From NCBI RefSeq assembly GCF_017301615.1, contig NZ_CP059066.1:1206001-1270000 (forward strand): a DNA stretch of 64,000 nucleotides. Reading direction: 5' to 3'. Source of the DNA: Koleobacter methoxysyntrophicus. GTDB lineage: Bacteria; Bacillota; Thermosediminibacteria; Koleobacterales; Koleobacteraceae. The stretch's first letter is position 1. Each line of letters opens with the position of its first letter. Positions 2,787-17,537 of this stretch are shown here, piece after piece. Under the pieces are notes generated by a model. It did not search any database. It saw nothing but the letters and a program-made list of their open reading frames with translations, and was not told the DNA's origin. The position numbers were made by a program, and so were the translations under genes.

Positions 2787-2973
2787 AAACTCCCTTATTT
2801 ATATATTCACCGGCAGTACTGATTTTCCTGCAATAAAATTGGGGCCATCTTCTGGAAAGTAGAGTTTGTTAATTGAAATTCGGCTGTCCGCAGATTATAA
2901 TAAGATTACAGAAAAATAAAAATCGGTTTTATTACTGAGGAATAAAAAAATTAATAGAGTGGGGGTTTTACAG

Positions 2974-3951
2974 ATGCAGATAAAATTTTATCAGCTTGAT
3001 GCCTTTACCGATACACCCTTCGGCGGGAACCCCGCGGGAGTCGTTCCGCTTATCCCTAAGCCCGGAAAAGATGAAATCCTTCCGAACCTCTCGGAAGAGC
3101 GGATGAGGAAGATTGCCGGTGAGATAAACTGCTCTGAAACGGCCTTCATACTAAAACCCCGGGACCCGAGGGCACACTTTTCGGTAAGATTCTTTACCCC
3201 GAAGGAAGAGGTTGACCTGTGCGGCCATGCGACGGTGGCAGCCTTCTGGCTTCTGGCAGAAGAAGGGTATATACCCCGAAAAGACCCTGTAAAGATAGTT
3301 ACACAGGAAACCAAAGCCGGGGTCCTTCCCGTAGCCGTATATTTTTGCGAAAAGGGCGAAACGGACAGGATAATGATGGTGCAGGCTCAGCCCGAGTTCA
3401 AACCCTGCCCCGTACCGCCGGAGGAGCTGTCGCATATCCTCGGCACAGCGGCAGAAAACCTTACCGTGCCCGAACGCCCCGATGCAGCACCCGTAATAGC
3501 CTCAACGGGCCTTCCCGACCTCCTCGTTCCCATCAAAAACAGAAAGGCCCTTGAGGAACTGAATCCCGACATGGCACGGCTTGCCCGAATCAGCAGAGAA
3601 CACGGTTTCATAAGTATCCATGCCTTTACATTTGACACAATAGACCCTGCCTGCACAGTGCACTGCCGCGACTTTGCCCCTGCCGTCGGCATAAACGAGG
3701 AATCGGCCACAGGCACCGCAAGCGGAGCCCTGGGGGCGTACCTGACGGCCTTCGGGATTATCGAGATAGCGGCCCCGACCACCCGGATAATATGTGAACA
3801 GGGCTATATCATGGGCCGACCCAGCAGGATTACAGTTGAAATAGATATCCTGGAGCGAAAATCAGAAGCCCCATGCGGCCGTTTTGCCCTGGGCAATATC
3901 AAGGTAGGCGGCCGTGCGGTCAGGATTATAGAAGGATTGCTCCATATCTAG
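2974..3951 (+). CDS. PhzF-family isomerase/epimerase-like protein
   Basis: About 325 aa. The start MQIKFYQLDAFTDTPFGGNPAGV is the classic PhzF N-terminus, with the catalytic glutamate in the INCSETAF segment and the second-domain signature GINEESATGTASGALGAYL. PhzF proteins share the diaminopimelate-epimerase fold; most family members have unknown substrates and only the phenazine enzymes are well defined. I chose ATG 2974 because GAGTGGGGG lies 7-8 nt upstream; an in-frame GTG at 2959 has no spaced ribosome binding site. There are no phenazine genes nearby, so a phenazine role is not supported. Confidence 0.88.
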   Translation: MQIKFYQLDAFTDTPFGGNPAGVVPLIPKPGKDEILPNLSEERMRKIAGEINCSETAFILKPRDPRAHFSVRFFTPKEEVDLCGHATVAAFWLLAEEGYIPRKDPVKIVTQETKAGVLPVAVYFCEKGETDRIMMVQAQPEFKPCPVPPEELSHILGTAAENLTVPERPDAAPVIASTGLPDLLVPIKNRKALEELNPDMARLARISREHGFISIHAFTFDTIDPACTVHCRDFAPAVGINEESATGTASGALGAYLTAFGIIEIAAPTTRIICEQGYIMGRPSRITVEIDILERKSEAPCGRFALGNIKVGGRAVRIIEGLLHI

Positions 3952-3963
3952 AATATGCGTATA

Positions 3964-4020
3964 CTTCACCTCCGGGCAGGGCAAATTAAATACAGCTTAA
4001 CAATCCTGCAGGAGGTGAAG
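3964..4020 (+). promoter_or_regulatory. Hairpin sequestering the ribosome binding site of a small ORF
   Basis: CTTCACCTCC (3964-3973) is the exact reverse complement of GGAGGTGAAG (4011-4020), which is the Shine-Dalgarno sequence 1 nt before ATG 4022. A second stem GCAGG/CCTGC (3976-3980 with 4005-4009) stacks on it, leaving a ~24-nt AT-rich loop. If transcribed, about 15 bp of stem would hide the ribosome binding site. This is the geometry of a translational switch; no known riboswitch family is recognised. Confidence 0.55.
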
Positions 4021-4021
4021 G

Positions 4022-4129
4022 ATGGTGAAGGGCCCTTTTATGAAGCGGAGAACCTTAATGGGCAGTGCAGTCGGACTTATAAGAGCAATGTTTAACAGGA
4101 TATTAAGAATGACCCTTCGAAGAAGATAG
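4022..4129 (+). CDS. Small basic peptide (35 aa), function unknown
   Basis: ATG 4022 to TAG 4129. The product begins MVKGPFMKRRTLMGSAVGLI and ends in TLRRR: a short hydrophobic/amphipathic core (about residues 12-30) flanked by arginines, net charge strongly positive. It has a near-perfect GGAGGTGAAG but only 1-nt spacing to the first ATG; GTG 4025 and ATG 4040 are further in-frame options. A terminator follows at once. No family is recognised. It might be a membrane-active peptide, a leader or a conserved small protein. Confidence 0.45.
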   Translation: MVKGPFMKRRTLMGSAVGLIRAMFNRILRMTLRRR

Positions 4130-4155
4130 GTGTGCTTTATGCACATCTTTTTTTA
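4124..4155 (+). terminator. Rho-independent terminator after the small ORF
   Basis: Stem GTGTGC / GCACAT (one G-U pair), loop TTTAT, then a run of seven T. It closes a compact ~200-nt unit with the hairpin and small ORF upstream. Confidence 0.6.
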
Positions 4156-4374: not shown

Positions 4375-4404
4375 TTGACGCACAAAAACCTACGGTGCTA
4401 TAAT
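4375..4404 (+). promoter_or_regulatory. Sigma-A type promoter of the S-layer gene
   Basis: TTGACG (4375-4380), an 18-bp spacer, TATAAT (4399-4404). This is the strongest promoter-like match in the region and would give a 5' leader of roughly 330 nt before ATG 4741, as is common for abundant S-layer mRNAs. Confidence 0.75.
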
Positions 4405-4433
4405 AGCTTTAGATGCTGAACATTGACAACCAA

Positions 4434-4710
4434 ATAATGAGTTCAAAGAAGATTCTCTTCATGAATACTCAAATCCGGTGAGCTGAACTCATTATTTTGA
4501 TAAAAAGTTTTTCAGGAGATGAAGCCCATTCTTTATTGAAGATACTGTAATTAACCATCTTGGAATTACTTCTTTGCCTGCTCCCGTGGATTCCTTCCTA
4601 CATAAAACCCGACGGGGATTCACGGCTGCATATATACTTTTAAAGGGGAAGGGGGGGTAAAGACTACCAACACGGTAAAGGAAGTTTTTTAAAAAGGCCT
4701 TTTTAAAAAA
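4434..4710 (+). promoter_or_regulatory. Structured long 5' leader of the S-layer gene
   Basis: Three structures can be seen. A 13-bp stem AATAATGAGTTCA/TGAACTCATTATT (about 4435-4447 with 4484-4496) encloses two small hairpins (GAAGA/TCTTC and CTCA/TGAG), making a three-way junction. A second stem pairs CCGTGGATTCC near 4584 with GGGGATTCACGG near 4615, with two wobble pairs. Just before the ribosome binding site lies a perfect 26-bp palindrome, T6A5GGCCT5A6 (4685-4710). These may stabilise the mRNA or control translation; no known riboswitch core is recognised. Confidence 0.5.
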
Positions 4711-4740
4711 TCACTACCAAATCAAAAGGAGGATTTGAGT

Positions 4741-7116
4741 ATGAAGAGAAAACTGTTAGCACTAGCCGTAGCTGTAATATTCATCCTCGGCACAGTAGCA
4801 ACAGGTTTTGCGGCAGATTTCAAGGATGTCGAAAATGCTGACTGCAAAAATGCCGTGACAAAACTTTCTGCATTGGGGATCATAAGCGGTTTCCCAGACG
4901 GGACATTCAGGCCCGCAGAACCGGTAACAAGGGCACAGATGGCAAAAATAATTGTCACAGCGGCGGGTGTTGGAAACGCTGCCCAATATGCTGCAGGGAT
5001 CACAAAATACAGTGATGTGCCCGCAAGCCATTGGGCATCCGGTTATATCAATGTAGCTTCCGATATGGGTATCATTCAGGGCTATGGTGACGGTAGATTC
5101 GGCCCTGAAGATCAGGTTACCTATGCACAGGCCATTACCATGATCGTAAGGGCTCTCGGCTATGAGCCAAAAGCTAAAGCTCTTGGCGGATATCCCGGTG
5201 GGTATCTGACAGTAGCTGCTGAGAAAGAGATCACCGATGGCGTCACTGTGGTAGGCAGCCTTGTGGCAAACCGCGGCGATATCGCATTGATGATAAGCAA
5301 TTCTCTTACCGTACCCATGATGGTGCAGAAGACCTGGGGACAGTTCCCCGAGTACGCAGAAGATGAAAACCAGACCCTTCTGAAGAAACTCGGCGTAACC
5401 GAACTTGAAGGGGTAAGGGTAGTTGCCAACAAGAGGGTCAATGACACCCTGAAGGACAACGAACTGAAGCTCAGCAACGGCAAAATCTACACGATCAAAT
5501 TTGACGGCAATGCAGAGTACCTGTTCGGACTGCAGGTAACTGCGTGGATTAAGAGCAGTGACCTTATAGGCGTTGAGATTGAGACCGACGTATTCTTCGA
5601 CGCAGTTAAGGAAGACGGCGGCGAGCTGAAGCTGGTCGGAGCAGGTAAGAAATACAGCTTTGCCGATGAAGTAGCCGTATATGTTAACGGAGAAGAAGAA
5701 GAAGAAAACTTCGACTTCGCCGGTTTTGTTGCCGACTACGCTAAGGTAGTCCTGGACGACGACGGAAAGGTAGCCTTCGTGGACGCCTATGAATGGACTG
5801 ACTTCATAGCGGTTGAAGAAGTGGAGGGCGATGTAGTATACGGTTACGGCGACGAGCTTGACCTGGAAGACTGGACAGTGGTCAAGGACGGCAAGTCCAT
5901 AGCCGTTAAAGACATCAAAGAGGGCGACATTCTGTTCTACAACGAATCTGCTGAGTATGCGGAAGTTTACAACAAGTCCTACAAGGGCAAGATTGAAAAG
6001 GTATATGACGACTCCTTCAAGATTGCCGGCAAAGAATTCGACTATGAATTCGATGCTCTCAGTGGTGGCGCATTGTATGCCGACGACAACGAACTGAAGA
6101 ATTTTGATGCCAATGTTGCCGACGACATGAAGGAAGAAGGCGGAGTCGTTGAAGTATTCGTAGACAGGCACGGCAATGCAATTCTTGTGTTCGGCGATAC
6201 CGGCGAGGCTGAAACCAGCACCTTCTATGCATACGTAATCGAAAATGCCAGCAAGTACGAGATCAGGAATAAAGAGTACTATAACCTCGACGTTGTAAAC
6301 GAAAAGGGTAAAGAAGTTAAATACGACATTGCTGCGGAGGATGCAGAGAAGTGGGGAATAGATGGGCTTGAGGCCAGAACTGTGGTTAAGATCGAAGTGG
6401 ACGAAGACGGGGATGTTGTTGGAGTTGAAATACTGGAGCCAAATGGTACAGATATTACTTTCAAAACAGATGACAGCTACGTAAATGGTAAGAAGCTTCT
6501 GTCCAGCGCGATTGTGTTCGATATCGAGGACTACACTGTAGATGTGGACGACATCGTTGTAAGCACCCTTGGCAAGGCCGATTTCGACGAAGTAAAGAAA
6601 GGTGATATCTACGTTGACGATGAGGACAGAGTGGTTGTAATAGTGGTCAAAGAATCCGATAAGGAAACCGATGAAACTGACTACACTGCAGTTGCAATAG
6701 CAGATCGCAAGAAGGTAACCGGTAAGGATATCTGGAGGCTTGATCTAAACATAGACGGCAAAGAAGTGACTTACTACACCAAAGACGGCAAGGTTTCTGT
6801 TGCTGCCGATGTATATGAAGGAATGTTCGTAAAAGTAACTGTAGACGGCAAAACTGATGAAATCACAGGATGCACAATTTTAGATACTGAGGAGTCAGCA
6901 AGAGTTGTAGAAGGCACAGTTAATTCAAGGAGCACCAGGGATCTGACCTTGGAAGTTGGCGACACAACCTACAGGCTGGACGATGCTACGATCCTCGATG
7001 CAACCGACGACTATGCAGTAATCAGAATCAGAGACCTGGCTGTCGGCGACAACGTAAAAATACTCCTTGTATCTGACGGTTCGAGATATGCTAAATACGT
7101 AGTAAAGACTGAATAA
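4741..7116 (+). CDS. SLH-domain S-layer protein
   Basis: 791 aa from ATG 4741. AAAGGAGG ends 8 nt upstream; the in-frame TTG 4735 is too close to it. A signal peptide (MKRKLLALAVAVIFILGTVA, cut probably after GFA) is followed by SLH repeats within about residues 25-190, with motifs ISGFPDGTFRPAEPVTRAQMA and IQGYGDGRFGPEDQVTYAQA. The remaining ~600 residues are very acidic beta-rich repeats. It has a strong promoter, a long structured leader and its own terminator, as expected for a major cell-surface lattice protein attached to wall polymer. It could instead be a less abundant SLH adhesin; no enzymatic domain is visible. Confidence 0.85.
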   Translation: MKRKLLALAVAVIFILGTVATGFAADFKDVENADCKNAVTKLSALGIISGFPDGTFRPAEPVTRAQMAKIIVTAAGVGNAAQYAAGITKYSDVPASHWASGYINVASDMGIIQGYGDGRFGPEDQVTYAQAITMIVRALGYEPKAKALGGYPGGYLTVAAEKEITDGVTVVGSLVANRGDIALMISNSLTVPMMVQKTWGQFPEYAEDENQTLLKKLGVTELEGVRVVANKRVNDTLKDNELKLSNGKIYTIKFDGNAEYLFGLQVTAWIKSSDLIGVEIETDVFFDAVKEDGGELKLVGAGKKYSFADEVAVYVNGEEEEENFDFAGFVADYAKVVLDDDGKVAFVDAYEWTDFIAVEEVEGDVVYGYGDELDLEDWTVVKDGKSIAVKDIKEGDILFYNESAEYAEVYNKSYKGKIEKVYDDSFKIAGKEFDYEFDALSGGALYADDNELKNFDANVADDMKEEGGVVEVFVDRHGNAILVFGDTGEAETSTFYAYVIENASKYEIRNKEYYNLDVVNEKGKEVKYDIAAEDAEKWGIDGLEARTVVKIEVDEDGDVVGVEILEPNGTDITFKTDDSYVNGKKLLSSAIVFDIEDYTVDVDDIVVSTLGKADFDEVKKGDIYVDDEDRVVVIVVKESDKETDETDYTAVAIADRKKVTGKDIWRLDLNIDGKEVTYYTKDGKVSVAADVYEGMFVKVTVDGKTDEITGCTILDTEESARVVEGTVNSRSTRDLTLEVGDTTYRLDDATILDATDDYAVIRIRDLAVGDNVKILLVSDGSRYAKYVVKTE

Positions 7117-7172: not shown

Positions 7173-7203
7173 ACGGCACAAGGGGACGGTTCTTTTGTGC
7201 CGT
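7173..7203. repeat. Palindromic repeat 5' of the RAYT transposase
   Basis: Inverted arms ACGGCACAA / TTGTGCCGT around GGGGACGGTTCTT. A related palindrome lies just 3' of the transposase (8011-8037, 20 of 27 positions alike, same orientation), as expected of REP-like sequences recognised by the adjacent enzyme. Confidence 0.6.
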
Positions 7204-7245
7204 TTTTCTTTTCCCCATATTTTAAAAAAAAACAGGGGTGCAAGA

Positions 7246-8004
7246 ATGCCAAGAAAACCAAGGGAGAAAAGCGGAACAGGAATTTACCATGTTATTTTAA
7301 GAGGGATCAATAAACAAAGAATATTTGAAGATGATCAGGATTATGAAAAACTGCTGGAAACACTAAAAGACTGTAAAGAAAAAAGTGGTTATGAAATTTA
7401 TGCTTACTGCTTTATGAGTAACCATATACATTTATTGATCAAAGAAGGAGAAGAAGATTTAGGAACAGTGTTTCGAAGGGTTGGAGCAACTTATGTATAT
7501 TGGTATAACTGGAAGTATAATCGGCGAGGTCATTTATTTCAAGACCGATATAAAAGTGAAACAGTTGAGACTGAAAGATATTTTTTAACAGTCCTTCGTT
7601 ATATTCACCAAAACCCGTTAAAAGCAGGAATGGTAAAGAAAGCTGCAGAATACCCATGGAGCAGTTACGGAGAATACATAAAAAAGCCGAAGATTTGCGA
7701 TACAGAGTTTGCTCTCAGTTTATTTTCTAAAGATCGAGAAGAAGCCATAAAGCTATTTAAGAAATTTAATTTAGAGGAAAACAGGGATCAATGTTTAGAG
7801 TACGATCAAAATATGAGATGGAAAGATCCAGAGGCCGCAGAATTTATAAAAAGGATTTCCGGAGTTCAAAGTCCACTAGAGATCCAACACTTTGAAAAAG
7901 AAAAGAGGAATCAAATAATCAAAAAATTAAAGAATAATGGGATTTCAATAAGACAGCTGGAAAGATTAACAGGAGTTAGCTTTGGTGTAATAAGACGAAT
8001 ATAA
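7246..8004 (+). CDS. REP-associated tyrosine transposase (RAYT, Y1/HUH)
   Basis: 252 aa from ATG 7246 (MPRKPREKSGTGIYHVILRG), with GGGGTG upstream. The HUH motif is HIHLL within AYCFMSNHIHLLIKEG, and the nucleophile tyrosine is probably in YIHQNPLKAGM. This is the single-domain HUH fold of IS200-related, domesticated RAYT transposases, which process single-stranded REP hairpins. The C-terminus ends with a helix-turn-helix-like ISIRQLERLTGVSFGVIRR. Codon use is more AT-rich than its neighbours, suggesting transfer. It is flanked by two related palindromes. Confidence 0.85.
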   Translation: MPRKPREKSGTGIYHVILRGINKQRIFEDDQDYEKLLETLKDCKEKSGYEIYAYCFMSNHIHLLIKEGEEDLGTVFRRVGATYVYWYNWKYNRRGHLFQDRYKSETVETERYFLTVLRYIHQNPLKAGMVKKAAEYPWSSYGEYIKKPKICDTEFALSLFSKDREEAIKLFKKFNLEENRDQCLEYDQNMRWKDPEAAEFIKRISGVQSPLEIQHFEKEKRNQIIKKLKNNGISIRQLERLTGVSFGVIRRI

Positions 8005-9830: not shown

Positions 9831-9857
9831 AAAAATAAGTTCATTGGGGAAGTGTTT

Positions 9858-10253
9858 ATGAATAAAAAAGAACTGATATCTTATTGGGTAGAAACAGCTA
9901 AACGTGATTACCATACAATGTTAAACTTATATCGAAGTAAAGATTATCATTGGAGTCTCTTTATGGGGCATTTAGTAATAGAAAAACTTTTAAAAGCCCT
10001 ATATGTTCAAAATGTAAGTAATAATCCTCCAAGAACTCACGACTTGTTAAGATTGGCAGATGAATGTAAGATAAATACAACTGAAGAACAAAAAGATTTG
10101 TTAGATTTTATTACTACATTTAATATAAGTGCCAGATACCCTGATTATGAACAGAGTTTTTATAAAAAATGTACATGCGATTTTACCTTTAAGAATATTA
10201 AAAAAATAAAGGAGTTGAAAAAATGGTTGATGTCGCTGTTAGATCACAAATAG
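9858..10253 (+). CDS. HEPN-domain protein (toxin of a HEPN/MNT pair)
   Basis: 131 aa from ATG 9858. It matches the minimal HEPN family: the first helix AKRDYHTMLNLYRSKDY, the EKLLKALYVQ segment and the RTHDLLRLADE signature. HEPN proteins of this type are RNases or tRNA-acting toxins, controlled by the partner nucleotidyltransferase. The 3' end overlaps the MNT gene by 31 nt, so the two are co-translated. Codon use is AT-rich relative to the chromosome core. Whether it is an active RNase cannot be told from the sequence. Confidence 0.85.
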   Translation: MNKKELISYWVETAKRDYHTMLNLYRSKDYHWSLFMGHLVIEKLLKALYVQNVSNNPPRTHDLLRLADECKINTTEEQKDLLDFITTFNISARYPDYEQSFYKKCTCDFTFKNIKKIKELKKWLMSLLDHK

Positions 10254-10537
10254 AACATATAGCCAGAGAATATGCTAAGCTTATATCAAAGGAAATGAAA
10301 GTTGAAGGTGTATATTTATTTGGGTCATATGTAAAAGGTGATTACTCCGAAGACAGTGATATAGATATAGCTGTAATCTCAGATGAATTTGTGGGAGATA
10401 TAATAGAGGATACATTTAAACTTATGAAACTTAGGAGAAAGGTTGATAATAGGATAGAACCACATCCTATTAAAAAAAACGATTTAAATGAACCTTTTAT
10501 TAAAGAAATATTGGGGAAAAGCCTGAGGATAGACTAG
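10223..10537 (+). CDS. MNT nucleotidyltransferase (antitoxin of the HEPN/MNT pair)
   Basis: 104 aa. The polymerase-beta signature LFGSYVKGDYSEDSDIDIAV has the GS motif and two catalytic aspartates. In characterised HEPN/MNT modules the MNT protein AMPylates a tyrosine of the HEPN toxin and silences it. AAAGGAG lies 8 nt before ATG 10223, inside the HEPN gene. It is complete. Confidence 0.85.
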   Translation: MVDVAVRSQIEHIAREYAKLISKEMKVEGVYLFGSYVKGDYSEDSDIDIAVISDEFVGDIIEDTFKLMKLRRKVDNRIEPHPIKKNDLNEPFIKEILGKSLRID

Positions 10538-10800: not shown

Positions 10801-10884
10801 CCCAAGGGCTTCAAGCAGGCCCTCGAAGAACTCCCCCGCAGAACAGTGGGCCACCACTTCGGCACGGCTATCCCAGGGAGTGGG
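10801..10884 (-). repeat. Duplicate of the 3' end of the sirtuin gene
   Basis: 84 bp matching 12791-12874 with one mismatch. It encodes only the last residues of the sirtuin (minus strand). It is joined at about 10885-10890 directly to a copy of the antitoxin gene. Confidence 0.9.
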
Positions 10885-11113
10885 TTCTCAAAACGTACCA
10901 AAAGAATTAAATATAAAGGATGAGTATAATTTGAAAATACCTTCAGATTTAATGGAAGTGATTAAAAATATAATAGGCGATGATTATCTTTTGAACTATA
11001 ATGAAGATACCAATCAGTTTTTTATAATAAAGAGGCCGAAATCCATTACAGAAGCTCTATATGGATTAGGTGCTGAAATGTGGAAAAAAGCTGGCGGCAC
11101 TATTGAAACTTAA
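10880..11113 (+). pseudogene. Rearranged second copy of the antitoxin gene
   Basis: 10890-11101 matches 13737-13951 at about 99%, with one 3-nt deletion and one base change (Trp to Leu). Upstream it is fused to the sirtuin tail, so the native TTG start is lost; an in-frame GTG at 10880 gives a new N-terminus, with poor RBS spacing. Downstream the match stops just before the native C-terminus and the frame ends in GGTIET. If expressed it would be an orphan antitoxin lacking its toxin-proximal tail; more likely it is a relic. Confidence 0.7.
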
Positions 11114-11183: not shown

Positions 11184-11780
11184 ATGATTGAAAAAGATGT
11201 TCTTTATAATGAATTTAAAAAACATGGCGGGGTTCTAAGAGCGTCAGAACTTAATGCACTAGGGCTTTCAAGTCGACAAATAAAGAAGCTTTTAGAGAAT
11301 GGTATTATTACGAAGATTAAGCACGGCTACTATGAACTATCAGATAATATCTATCCTGAAGAAGTAGTTATAGCTAGACTATTTCCTGGGGCTGTAATTT
11401 TTCTTGAAAGTGCACTAGCGCATTATGGTTATACAGATAGAATACCGTCGGCATGGCAAATAGCGGTGGATAGACATAGTGAAAAAAGTCAGTACAAAAT
11501 CGATTATCCGCTGATAAAGCCTTTTTATCTTGAACCAAAACTGCTAAAAATCGGTATAGATACAATTAAAGTAGAAGGTATAAAGGTTAAAATATTTAAT
11601 CGTGATCGAACTATATGTGATGTTCTAAAGTATGAGAATAAACTGGAGAGAGAAGTATTCAGTAATGCAATTAGGCGGTATGTAAAAGACAATAAGAAAA
11701 ATGTGAGAAGACTATTTGAATACGCTGAAATATTTAGTATAAAGAAAAAAGTGCAGACCTATATAGGAGTATGGTTATAA
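11184..11780 (+). CDS. abiEi: AbiEi-type antitoxin / transcriptional regulator
   Basis: 198 aa, with GAGGTG 6 nt before ATG 11184. The N-terminal winged helix (LRASELNALGLSSRQIKKLLENGIITKIKHGYYEL) is the AbiEi_4 domain, followed by the C-terminal domain with VIARLFPGAVIFLESALAHYGY. In type IV TA/abortive infection systems AbiEi represses its operon and opposes the toxin AbiEii without a stable complex. Its stop overlaps the abiEii start (TAATG). Complete and AT-rich. Confidence 0.88.
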   Translation: MIEKDVLYNEFKKHGGVLRASELNALGLSSRQIKKLLENGIITKIKHGYYELSDNIYPEEVVIARLFPGAVIFLESALAHYGYTDRIPSAWQIAVDRHSEKSQYKIDYPLIKPFYLEPKLLKIGIDTIKVEGIKVKIFNRDRTICDVLKYENKLEREVFSNAIRRYVKDNKKNVRRLFEYAEIFSIKKKVQTYIGVWL

Positions 11781-12676
11781 TGGTTGATATGGCAGCATCA
11801 GTTTTAGCTAGGCTAAAAAACAGGTCAAGAAAACAAGGTATTCAACTACAACAGCTGCTAAATTTCTTTTGTCAAGAAGAGTTTATTCGAAGGCTTTCTC
11901 AATCAAGCTACAGAGACAACCTCATTCTAAAAGGAGGATTTCTATTATATTTAATTAGTGAATTTACCACGAGGCCGACAGTTGATGCAGATTACCTTTT
12001 AAAGAATTATTCAAATAATATAGATGCCATCGAAAAGCTTGTTAGGGAAATCATTTCTTTACCTAGCAAAAATGACTATATTAAGTTTGAAATTAGAGGT
12101 TTAGAGGTAATCAGAGAGATTAAGGAGTACCATGGTGTCAGAGTTAATCTTACAGGTTTTGTCGGAAATACAAAGACGCCTTTTAGTATCGATTTTGGGG
12201 TGGGGGATATTATTGTACCTTCAGCAGTTGAGAGAACACTGCCGGTACTGCTTCCAGAGTTTGAAAAACCCAAAGTCTTAACCTATTCTTTAGAGTCTAC
12301 AGTAGCAGAAAAATTAGATGCTATCATATCTCTAATGGAAGCCACGGGACGCATGAAGGATTTTTATGATATATATTACCTAGCCACAACATTTGACTTT
12401 GAGGGTAGAAAGCTTCAAGAAGCAATTTACGAGACCCTCTCTAATCGAGGCACATCATATGAAAAAGACTCTGTTGCTGTCATTTCTAGATTAGCAAAGG
12501 ATGCTGAAATTCAGAAGCGGTGGAGTAATTTCTGTAAGAAAGTATTGAAATATGAACTGAGCTTTAGTGATGTAGTTGAGGTGATCATTAATTTCATATT
12601 ACCACCTTATCAATCAATAATTCAAGAGGATGAATTCTTTAAGACCTGGAGATATAAAGATAGAAAGTATGTTTAA
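11780..12676 (+). CDS. abiEii: AbiEii-type nucleotidyltransferase toxin
   Basis: 298 aa from ATG 11780, 11 nt after AGGAG; the in-frame ATG 11771 is too close to it. The nucleotidyltransferase motifs are LKGGFLLYL and RPTVDADYL (two acidic residues), with KLDAIISLMEATGRMKDFYDIYYL as the third signature of the AbiEii/AbiGii family. Characterised members transfer nucleotides to RNA (e.g. tRNA acceptor stems) and stop growth during phage infection. The gene appears intact, so the system could be functional. Confidence 0.88.
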   Translation: MVDMAASVLARLKNRSRKQGIQLQQLLNFFCQEEFIRRLSQSSYRDNLILKGGFLLYLISEFTTRPTVDADYLLKNYSNNIDAIEKLVREIISLPSKNDYIKFEIRGLEVIREIKEYHGVRVNLTGFVGNTKTPFSIDFGVGDIIVPSAVERTLPVLLPEFEKPKVLTYSLESTVAEKLDAIISLMEATGRMKDFYDIYYLATTFDFEGRKLQEAIYETLSNRGTSYEKDSVAVISRLAKDAEIQKRWSNFCKKVLKYELSFSDVVEVIINFILPPYQSIIQEDEFFKTWRYKDRKYV

Positions 12677-13732: not shown

Positions 13733-13990
13733 TTGGAAAACGTACCAAAAGAATTAAATATAAAGGATGAGTATATAAATTTGAAAATACCTTCAGATTT
13801 AATGGAAGTGATTAAAAATATAATAGGCGATGATTATCTTTGGAACTATAATGAAGATACCAATCAGTTTTTTATAATAAAGAGGCCGAAATCCATTACA
13901 GAAGCTCTATATGGATTAGGTGCTGAAATGTGGAAAAAAGCTGGCGGCACTGATTATATTAGACAGGAGAGAGAAGAATGGGACAGTTAG
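13733..13990 (+). CDS. VapB-like antitoxin
   Basis: 85 aa from TTG 13733; GGAGG (13719-13723) lies 9 nt upstream. The family is not certain, but it is small and its C-terminus (ALYGLGAEMWKKAGGTDYIR) is amphipathic. It overlaps by 13 nt a PIN-domain reading frame starting at ATG 13978, the standard antitoxin-toxin order. A near-identical but rearranged copy is at 10880-11113. It would bind and neutralise a PIN RNase and repress the promoter. The toxin is now truncated. Confidence 0.65.
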   Translation: MENVPKELNIKDEYINLKIPSDLMEVIKNIIGDDYLWNYNEDTNQFFIIKRPKSITEALYGLGAEMWKKAGGTDYIRQEREEWDS

Positions 13991-17346: not shown

Positions 17347-17537
17347 AAATGACATGTTTCTACTCAAGTTTGGCGACAATATTTTCCAACCTTTATAAAT
17401 CAGGGATTAAGTTCCATAGAACAGTGATTTGTAGTAGAGAAAACGTGCGATACTTTCATTCAACTTTCGAGTTTACTTGATATTGAGCGCTTCCTGTGGT
17501 ATAATTGTAGTAGCCAATAATCTGCAGGAGGCCAGTG

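What the first reader, a model, noticed from the sequence alone, without database searches (positions are those of the whole stretch)
3964..4155. Self-contained small-ORF unit with a hairpin masking the ribosome binding site
A 10-bp perfect plus 5-bp additional stem covers the whole Shine-Dalgarno sequence of a 35-codon arginine-rich ORF, and a terminator follows at once. The layout resembles a translational switch (temperature, ligand or small RNA controlled) or a toxic-peptide locus. No known riboswitch is recognised.
Basis: partly seen in the sequence, partly recalled or inferred. Interest (0 to 1): 0.6.

Follow-up and report, generated by a model that had tools for sequence, protein, structure and literature searches.

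The report
Hairpin-locked start of an orphan mini-gene
A tiny, previously undescribed gene for a 35-residue basic peptide has its ribosome-binding site folded shut by a strong RNA hairpin, most likely so that RNA running in from the neighbouring gene cannot be translated while RNA started at the gene's own promoter can; the trick is known elsewhere, but the peptide has no known relatives.

Summary
An exact 10-bp stem (3964-3973/4011-4020) plus a 6-bp inner stem buries AGGAGGTGA, the ribosome-binding site of a 35-codon ORF (4022-4129) that ends in a terminator. It is the most occluded of 91 Shine-Dalgarno sites in the window and the only lock of its kind found in the 3.1-Mb genome. It is too stable for a thermometer, and no Rfam family matches. 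Cutting the RNA's 5' end back to about 3971 or beyond frees the site to the level of ordinary genes. A weak promoter (TTGCTC-17-TATACT) would start RNA at about 3972, inside the left arm. The best reading is therefore a start-site-dependent lock against read-through from phzF, the mechanism known for T4 I-TevI. A transposase gene in the same window (17535) shows the same layout with a near-consensus promoter. The peptide (+10 charge, predicted helix) is an orphan: no family, no paralogue, none in 399 sampled genomes of the phylum, not SpoVM. Codon statistics neither support nor exclude coding. The unit is absent downstream of phzF in the one same-order relative, so covariation could not be tested. 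A toxin remains possible but unsupported. This is a new member of a known kind; interest is modest.

The parts
3964..3973 (+). left arm of the SD-locking stem (CTTCACCTCC, resembles the 3' tail of 16S rRNA)
4011..4020 (+). right arm (GGAGGTGAAG), contains the SD core
3976..3981 (+). inner stem, left arm (GCAGGG)
4004..4009 (+). inner stem, right arm (TCCTGC)
4010..4018 (+). Shine-Dalgarno sequence AGGAGGTGA, complementary over 9 nt to the 16S tail
   Evidence: complementarity from the known 16S 3' end
4022..4129 (+). 35-codon ORF, MVKGPFMKRRTLMGSAVGLIRAMFNRILRMTLRRR, predicted helix 7-34, net charge +10
   Evidence: coding status not proven
4128..4151 (+). intrinsic terminator, 8-bp stem and T run, overlapping the stop codon
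3937..3965 (+). weak sigma-A-like promoter TTGCTC-17-TATACT; predicted start ~3972, inside the left arm
   Evidence: 8 of 12 matches; such TTG-type sites occur 0.39 per kb per strand
2959..3951 (+). phzF-family isomerase gene upstream, same strand, stop 12 nt before the left arm; source of read-through RNA

Best explanation
A monocistronic small-peptide gene whose ribosome-binding site is locked in any RNA that reads in from the upstream phzF gene, because such RNA contains the left arm. It is open in RNA started at the gene's own promoter, whose predicted start (about 3972-3974) lies at the end of the left arm, so that only the short inner stem, which leaves GGAGG free, can form. The lock therefore ties translation of the peptide to its own promoter and prevents accidental expression. 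Shown: the stem, the masking, the ORF and terminator, and, by calculation, release of the SD when the 5' end is at or beyond 3971. Inferred: promoter use, translation of the ORF, and that the peptide is costly or harmful when misexpressed.
For: SD unpaired 0.000 for 5' ends 3955-3966, but 0.33-0.40 for 5' ends 3970-3976, close to the gene median of 0.40. Promoter-like TTGCTC-17-TATACT at 3937/3960 puts the start at ~3972. phzF is co-directional, ends 12 nt upstream, and no terminator was found between them. The transposase gene at 17535 in the same window has the same layout with an 11-of-12 promoter (TTGATA-17-TATAAT) that starts RNA downstream of the left arm: SD 0.002 in read-through RNA, 0.33 from the own start. 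The mechanism is established for T4 I-TevI and described for I-TevII, I-TevIII, segB and others (PMC2988022).
Against: The promoter is weak (3 of 6 and 5 of 6) and was chosen after the fact; loose 8-of-12 sites occur 6.7 per kb per strand, so one with its start in the arm has roughly a 7% chance. Other loose sites predict a start at 3961, which would keep the lock. No RNA data. Coding statistics are neutral. No relative carries the unit, so neither arms nor peptide can be shown to be under selection.
Confidence: 0.4

Rival explanations
1. A true post-transcriptional switch: the primary transcript contains the whole hairpin and is silent until something opens it (RNase processing of the 5' end, a small RNA, an RNA-binding protein or a ligand).
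For: Two loose promoter matches predict a start at 3961 with the hairpin complete. The lock is very stable. Silent primary transcripts activated by processing are a hallmark of type I toxin mRNAs (PMC6733600, PMC11228461).
Against: No Rfam family, no trans partner identified, no relative for covariation.
Confidence: 0.2
2. A type I toxin locus: the basic helical peptide is toxic and the lock is one of several layers that keep it off.
For: Length below 60 aa, predicted helix, basic C terminus and SD sequestration are common among type I toxins (PMC8309996).
Against: No antisense promoter of at least 8 of 12 inside the unit; the nearest on the minus strand starts at ~4236. The peptide is more arginine-rich than an ordinary hydrophobic membrane segment; its helical moment is not above that of shuffles (p 0.68 for 7-35, 0.13 for 14-32). 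No family match. Single copy.
Confidence: 0.12
3. Translational coupling: ribosomes ending phzF restart at ATG 3955 (46-codon ORF, same frame as phzF, 3 nt after its stop), run through the stem and expose the SD of the 35-codon ORF.
For: ORF 3955-4095 crosses the whole hairpin. Its base composition by codon position (0.53/0.34/0.51) resembles genes more than that of the 35-codon ORF (0.33/0.47/0.47). Codon score is 2.5 against 0.2-0.9.
Against: No SD at normal distance for ATG 3955. No relatives of the 46-aa product. The ORF overlaps the 35-codon ORF out of frame.
Confidence: 0.08
4. Chance or relic: an inverted repeat that happens to face an SD-like sequence, and the ORF is not a gene; the RNA may be the 3' trailer of phzF ended by the terminator at 4128-4148.
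For: Neutral coding score. No conservation of peptide or DNA. Unit absent next to phzF in the same-order relative.
Against: 9-nt SD at ideal spacing, stop codon abutting a terminator, hairpin z = -5.95, the only such lock found in the genome.
Confidence: 0.17
5. RNA thermometer.
For: The SD lies in a hairpin.
Against: The stem is perfect and G+C-rich; SD unpaired only 0.003 at 70 C in the model.
Confidence: 0.02

Closest known systems
T4 I-TevI/I-TevII/I-TevIII, segB and T4 genes soc and e: ribosome-binding-site hairpin in early read-through RNA, late promoter starting past the arm (PMC2988022)
   Same: Consensus SD masked by a stable stem in RNA from upstream promoters; predicted own start removes the arm and frees the SD
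   Different: Here a chromosomal small-peptide ORF in a firmicute; promoter weak and unmapped; no phage late regulator
Transposase read-through locks (IS10 type, from general knowledge; and the transposase at 17535 of this window)
   Same: Left arm upstream of the own start, SD locked only in impinging transcripts
   Different: The finding is single-copy and shows no sign of being a mobile element
Type I toxin mRNAs (aapA, tisB, hok; PMC6733600, PMC8309996)
   Same: Short helical basic peptide, SD sequestration by an anti-SD
   Different: No antisense RNA found, no sequence relation, more arginine-rich
SpoVM, 26-residue sporulation peptide
   Same: Short, basic, helical; superficial likeness (GLIRAM / GIVRAM)
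   Different: Fails the profile test; canonical spoVM is elsewhere in this genome

Membership tests
Start-site-dependent SD lock (T4 I-TevI type) | Stable stem masks the SD in upstream-initiated RNA | tested here: met
   SD unpaired 0.0003
Start-site-dependent SD lock (T4 I-TevI type) | RNA from the gene's own promoter lacks the arm and leaves the SD free | tested here: inconclusive
   Computed release for 5' ends at or beyond 3970; promoter weak, start unmapped
Start-site-dependent SD lock (T4 I-TevI type) | Reporter shows lower translation from long than from short RNA | not testable with these tools
   needs experiment
Type I toxin-antitoxin | Antisense RNA antitoxin overlapping or near the toxin mRNA | tested here: inconclusive
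   No promoter of at least 8 of 12 on the minus strand within the unit; nearest predicted start ~4236
Type I toxin-antitoxin | Peptide related to a known type I toxin family | tested here: not met
   No match in Pfam, NCBIfam or PHROGs
Type I toxin-antitoxin | Toxic on expression | not testable with these tools
   needs experiment
SpoVM (PF08183) | Profile match and the [KR]-[LM]-P-[KR] core found in all 17 SpoVM of the class examined | tested here: not met
   PSSM score -19.9, shuffles -18.6 +/- 5.7; own SpoVM +54; core absent
SpoVM (PF08183) | Location in the rpe-spoVM-rpmB-asp23 cluster | tested here: not met
   That place holds the canonical gene, locus L005; neighbours named from their translations
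RNA thermometer | SD helix melts in the physiological range | tested here: not met
   SD unpaired 0.003 at 70 C in the model
Known riboswitch or Rfam element | Covariance-model match | tested here: not met

The most novel reading that the evidence does not exclude
A new lineage-specific peptide gene, possibly a toxin or a membrane-active sporulation or stress peptide, held silent by a start-site-dependent or factor-dependent SD lock and unrelated to any known family.
Probability: 0.25. Interest if true: 0.45.

Novelty: new member of a known kind. Interest (0 to 1): 0.28.

Why it matters
Very short genes are routinely missed by annotation. A locked ribosome-binding site marks them as genes whose accidental expression may be selected against, so the layout (left arm astride the promoter, perfect SD, short ORF, terminator) could be used to find other small or toxic genes. 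Finding it both at a transposase and at this ORF in one window suggests that the device is used more than once in this lineage.

Tried and rejected
SpoVM paralogue: rejected by profile and synteny. Attempts to build a SpoVM HMM failed for technical reasons; a position-specific matrix was used instead. Left arm as the SD of a divergent gene: no start codon at a proper distance on the minus strand. Repeated or mobile element: no second copy in the genome. Weak peptide hits in other genomes: antisense or interrupted frames of long genes. Phage and plasmid records: nothing convincing. HicB-like likeness of the 46-codon ORF seen by eye: no profile match. RNA thermometer. Searching 399 genomes for the exact lock found only this one, but the pattern is so specific that none is expected by chance, so this shows lack of relatives, not significance.

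Full report
Setting. The window is G000:C1:1206001-1270000 of a 3.10-Mb single-contig genome. The neighbour with the closest phzF, 52% identical over its best segment, is a MAG titled Thermosediminibacterales bacterium (L006). Its contig coordinates match the same-order genome G003. Only one genome of the genus and one other of the family are held, so close comparison is not possible.

Observation. The region holds, on one strand, phzF (2959-3951; Pfam PhzC-PhzF), the hairpin 3964-4020, the 35-codon ORF 4022-4129 and a terminator 4128-4148, followed by a long leader and an S-layer-homology protein gene (4735-7116). The outer stem has 10 perfect pairs and the inner one 6, one of them G-U. The hairpin has z = -5.95. 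The SD is the most hidden of 91 SD-plus-start sites in the window. Shuffling only the upstream 59 nt never reproduces this in 1000 trials. In the whole genome CACCTCC followed within 4-60 nt by GGAGGTG occurs only here.

Is the ORF a gene? For: AGGAGGTGA is a 9-nt SD placed 6 nt from ATG, and the stop codon abuts a terminator with a T run. Neutral: codon likelihood is 0.2 to 0.9, between real 35-codon stretches (4.9 +/- 3.9) and off-frame ones (-3.6 +/- 4.6); G+C by codon position is atypical, as expected of an AGA/AGG-rich ORF but also of a non-gene. Against: no relative in Pfam, NCBIfam, PHROGs, PDB, phages, plasmids, 60 relatives or 399 genomes of the phylum. The best weak genome hits lie in antisense or interrupted frames. 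I put the chance that it is translated at about two in three (judgement).

What the lock does. Folding RNAs with successive 5' ends shows a sharp transition: the SD is closed (0.000) for 5' ends up to 3966, partly open at 3968-3969 (0.14-0.24) and open to the ordinary level (0.33-0.40) from 3970 on. The median of long genes is 0.40. The promoter-like TTGCTC-17-TATACT predicts a start at about 3972, so own transcripts would be open and phzF read-through RNA closed. The promoter is weak and was found after the fact: TTG-type sites as good occur 0.39 times per kb per strand, any 8-of-12 site 6.7 times, so the coincidence probability for an 11-nt target is between about 0.004 and 0.07.

Internal precedent. 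The second most hidden SD in the window belongs to the transposase gene at 17535. It has TTGATA-17-TATAAT with the left arm between the two hexamers. The SD is unpaired 0.002 in read-through RNA and 0.33 in RNA from its own predicted start. The left end occurs in four copies in the genome. The architecture is the one described for T4 homing endonucleases, where the structure only forms on transcripts from upstream promoters and the late promoter is placed so that late RNA cannot form it (PMC2988022).

Rivals. A thermometer is disfavoured because the stem does not melt by 70 C in the model. A type I toxin shares the short basic helix (AlphaFold helix 7-34, mean pLDDT 71.6, no alignment) and the SD sequestration (PMC6733600, PMC8309996), but no antisense RNA promoter lies in the unit, no family matches, and the helix is not unusually amphipathic. 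SpoVM was considered because of GLIRAM/GIVRAM and is rejected: the genome has a canonical spoVM in an rpe-rpmB-asp23-like cluster, and the peptide scores no better than its shuffles on a SpoVM profile of the class. Translational coupling through ORF 3955-4095, in frame with phzF, cannot be excluded. A relic or chance reading keeps about 0.17.

Conservation. The same-order relative has phzF followed closely by an inverted repeat and a converging gene, without the unit. Since the downstream gene differs too and the relative is of another family, this neither refutes nor supports function. Covariation is untestable at present.

Wider look. Scanning viral contigs for a near-identical lock led to a phage small-protein family (weak phrog_3280) in which 30 of 71 distinct leaders hide the SD (unpaired below 0.05) and 61 have a stem of at least 7 bp, G-U allowed, over it. 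In a hand-picked subset the SD stem shows two pairs with changes on both sides; a broader, heterogeneous alignment gave no consensus fold, and no Rfam family matches. It is unrelated by sequence to the finding but shows that two-stem SD locks before short ORFs recur and can be conserved.

Verdict. A real and strong SD lock on a probable orphan small gene; mechanism most likely start-site-dependent protection from read-through translation (0.4). Known kind of device, unknown peptide.

Noticed in passing
17477-17537: Transposase gene (ORF from 17535) with near-consensus promoter TTGATA-17-TATAAT whose spacer contains an arm that masks the SD only in read-through RNA (0.002 against 0.33); four copies of this end in the genome at 98-100% identity.
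   Followed up: yes
L130-L209, L095, L096, L101, L111, L113: Phage small-protein family (62-70 aa, weak phrog_3280) preceded by a two-stem SD-locking leader in many homologues; some compensatory changes, no Rfam match. Candidate new cis-regulatory RNA.
   Followed up: partly
4375-4735: Strong promoter (TTGACG-18-TATAAT, 4375-4404) and a leader of about 325 nt before the S-layer-homology gene, with a perfect 14-bp inverted repeat 4432-4445/4484-4497 around a 38-nt loop; only weak sub-threshold Rfam matches.
   Followed up: no
3955-4095: 46-codon ORF in frame with phzF, starting 3 nt after its TAG stop and spanning the hairpin; gene-like codon-position composition but no relatives.
   Followed up: partly
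L005 (G000:C1:2273607-2273675): Canonical spoVM scores below the Pfam cut-off (14.7 against 20.6 bits), as do most SpoVM of the class: PF08183 misses true members at its curated threshold.
   Followed up: partly
10880-11113 and 13733-13990: Two nearly identical ORFs (KELNIKDEY..NLKIPSDLMEVIKNIIGDDYL..) about 2.9 kb apart, flanking a Sir2-like gene and what looks like an AbiEi/AbiEii-type pair (11184-12676); a HEPN/MNT-like pair lies at 9852-10537. Names from sequence appearance only.
   Followed up: no
7195-8004: Y1-type (REP-associated-like) transposase ORF next to the S-layer-homology gene; name from sequence appearance only.
   Followed up: no
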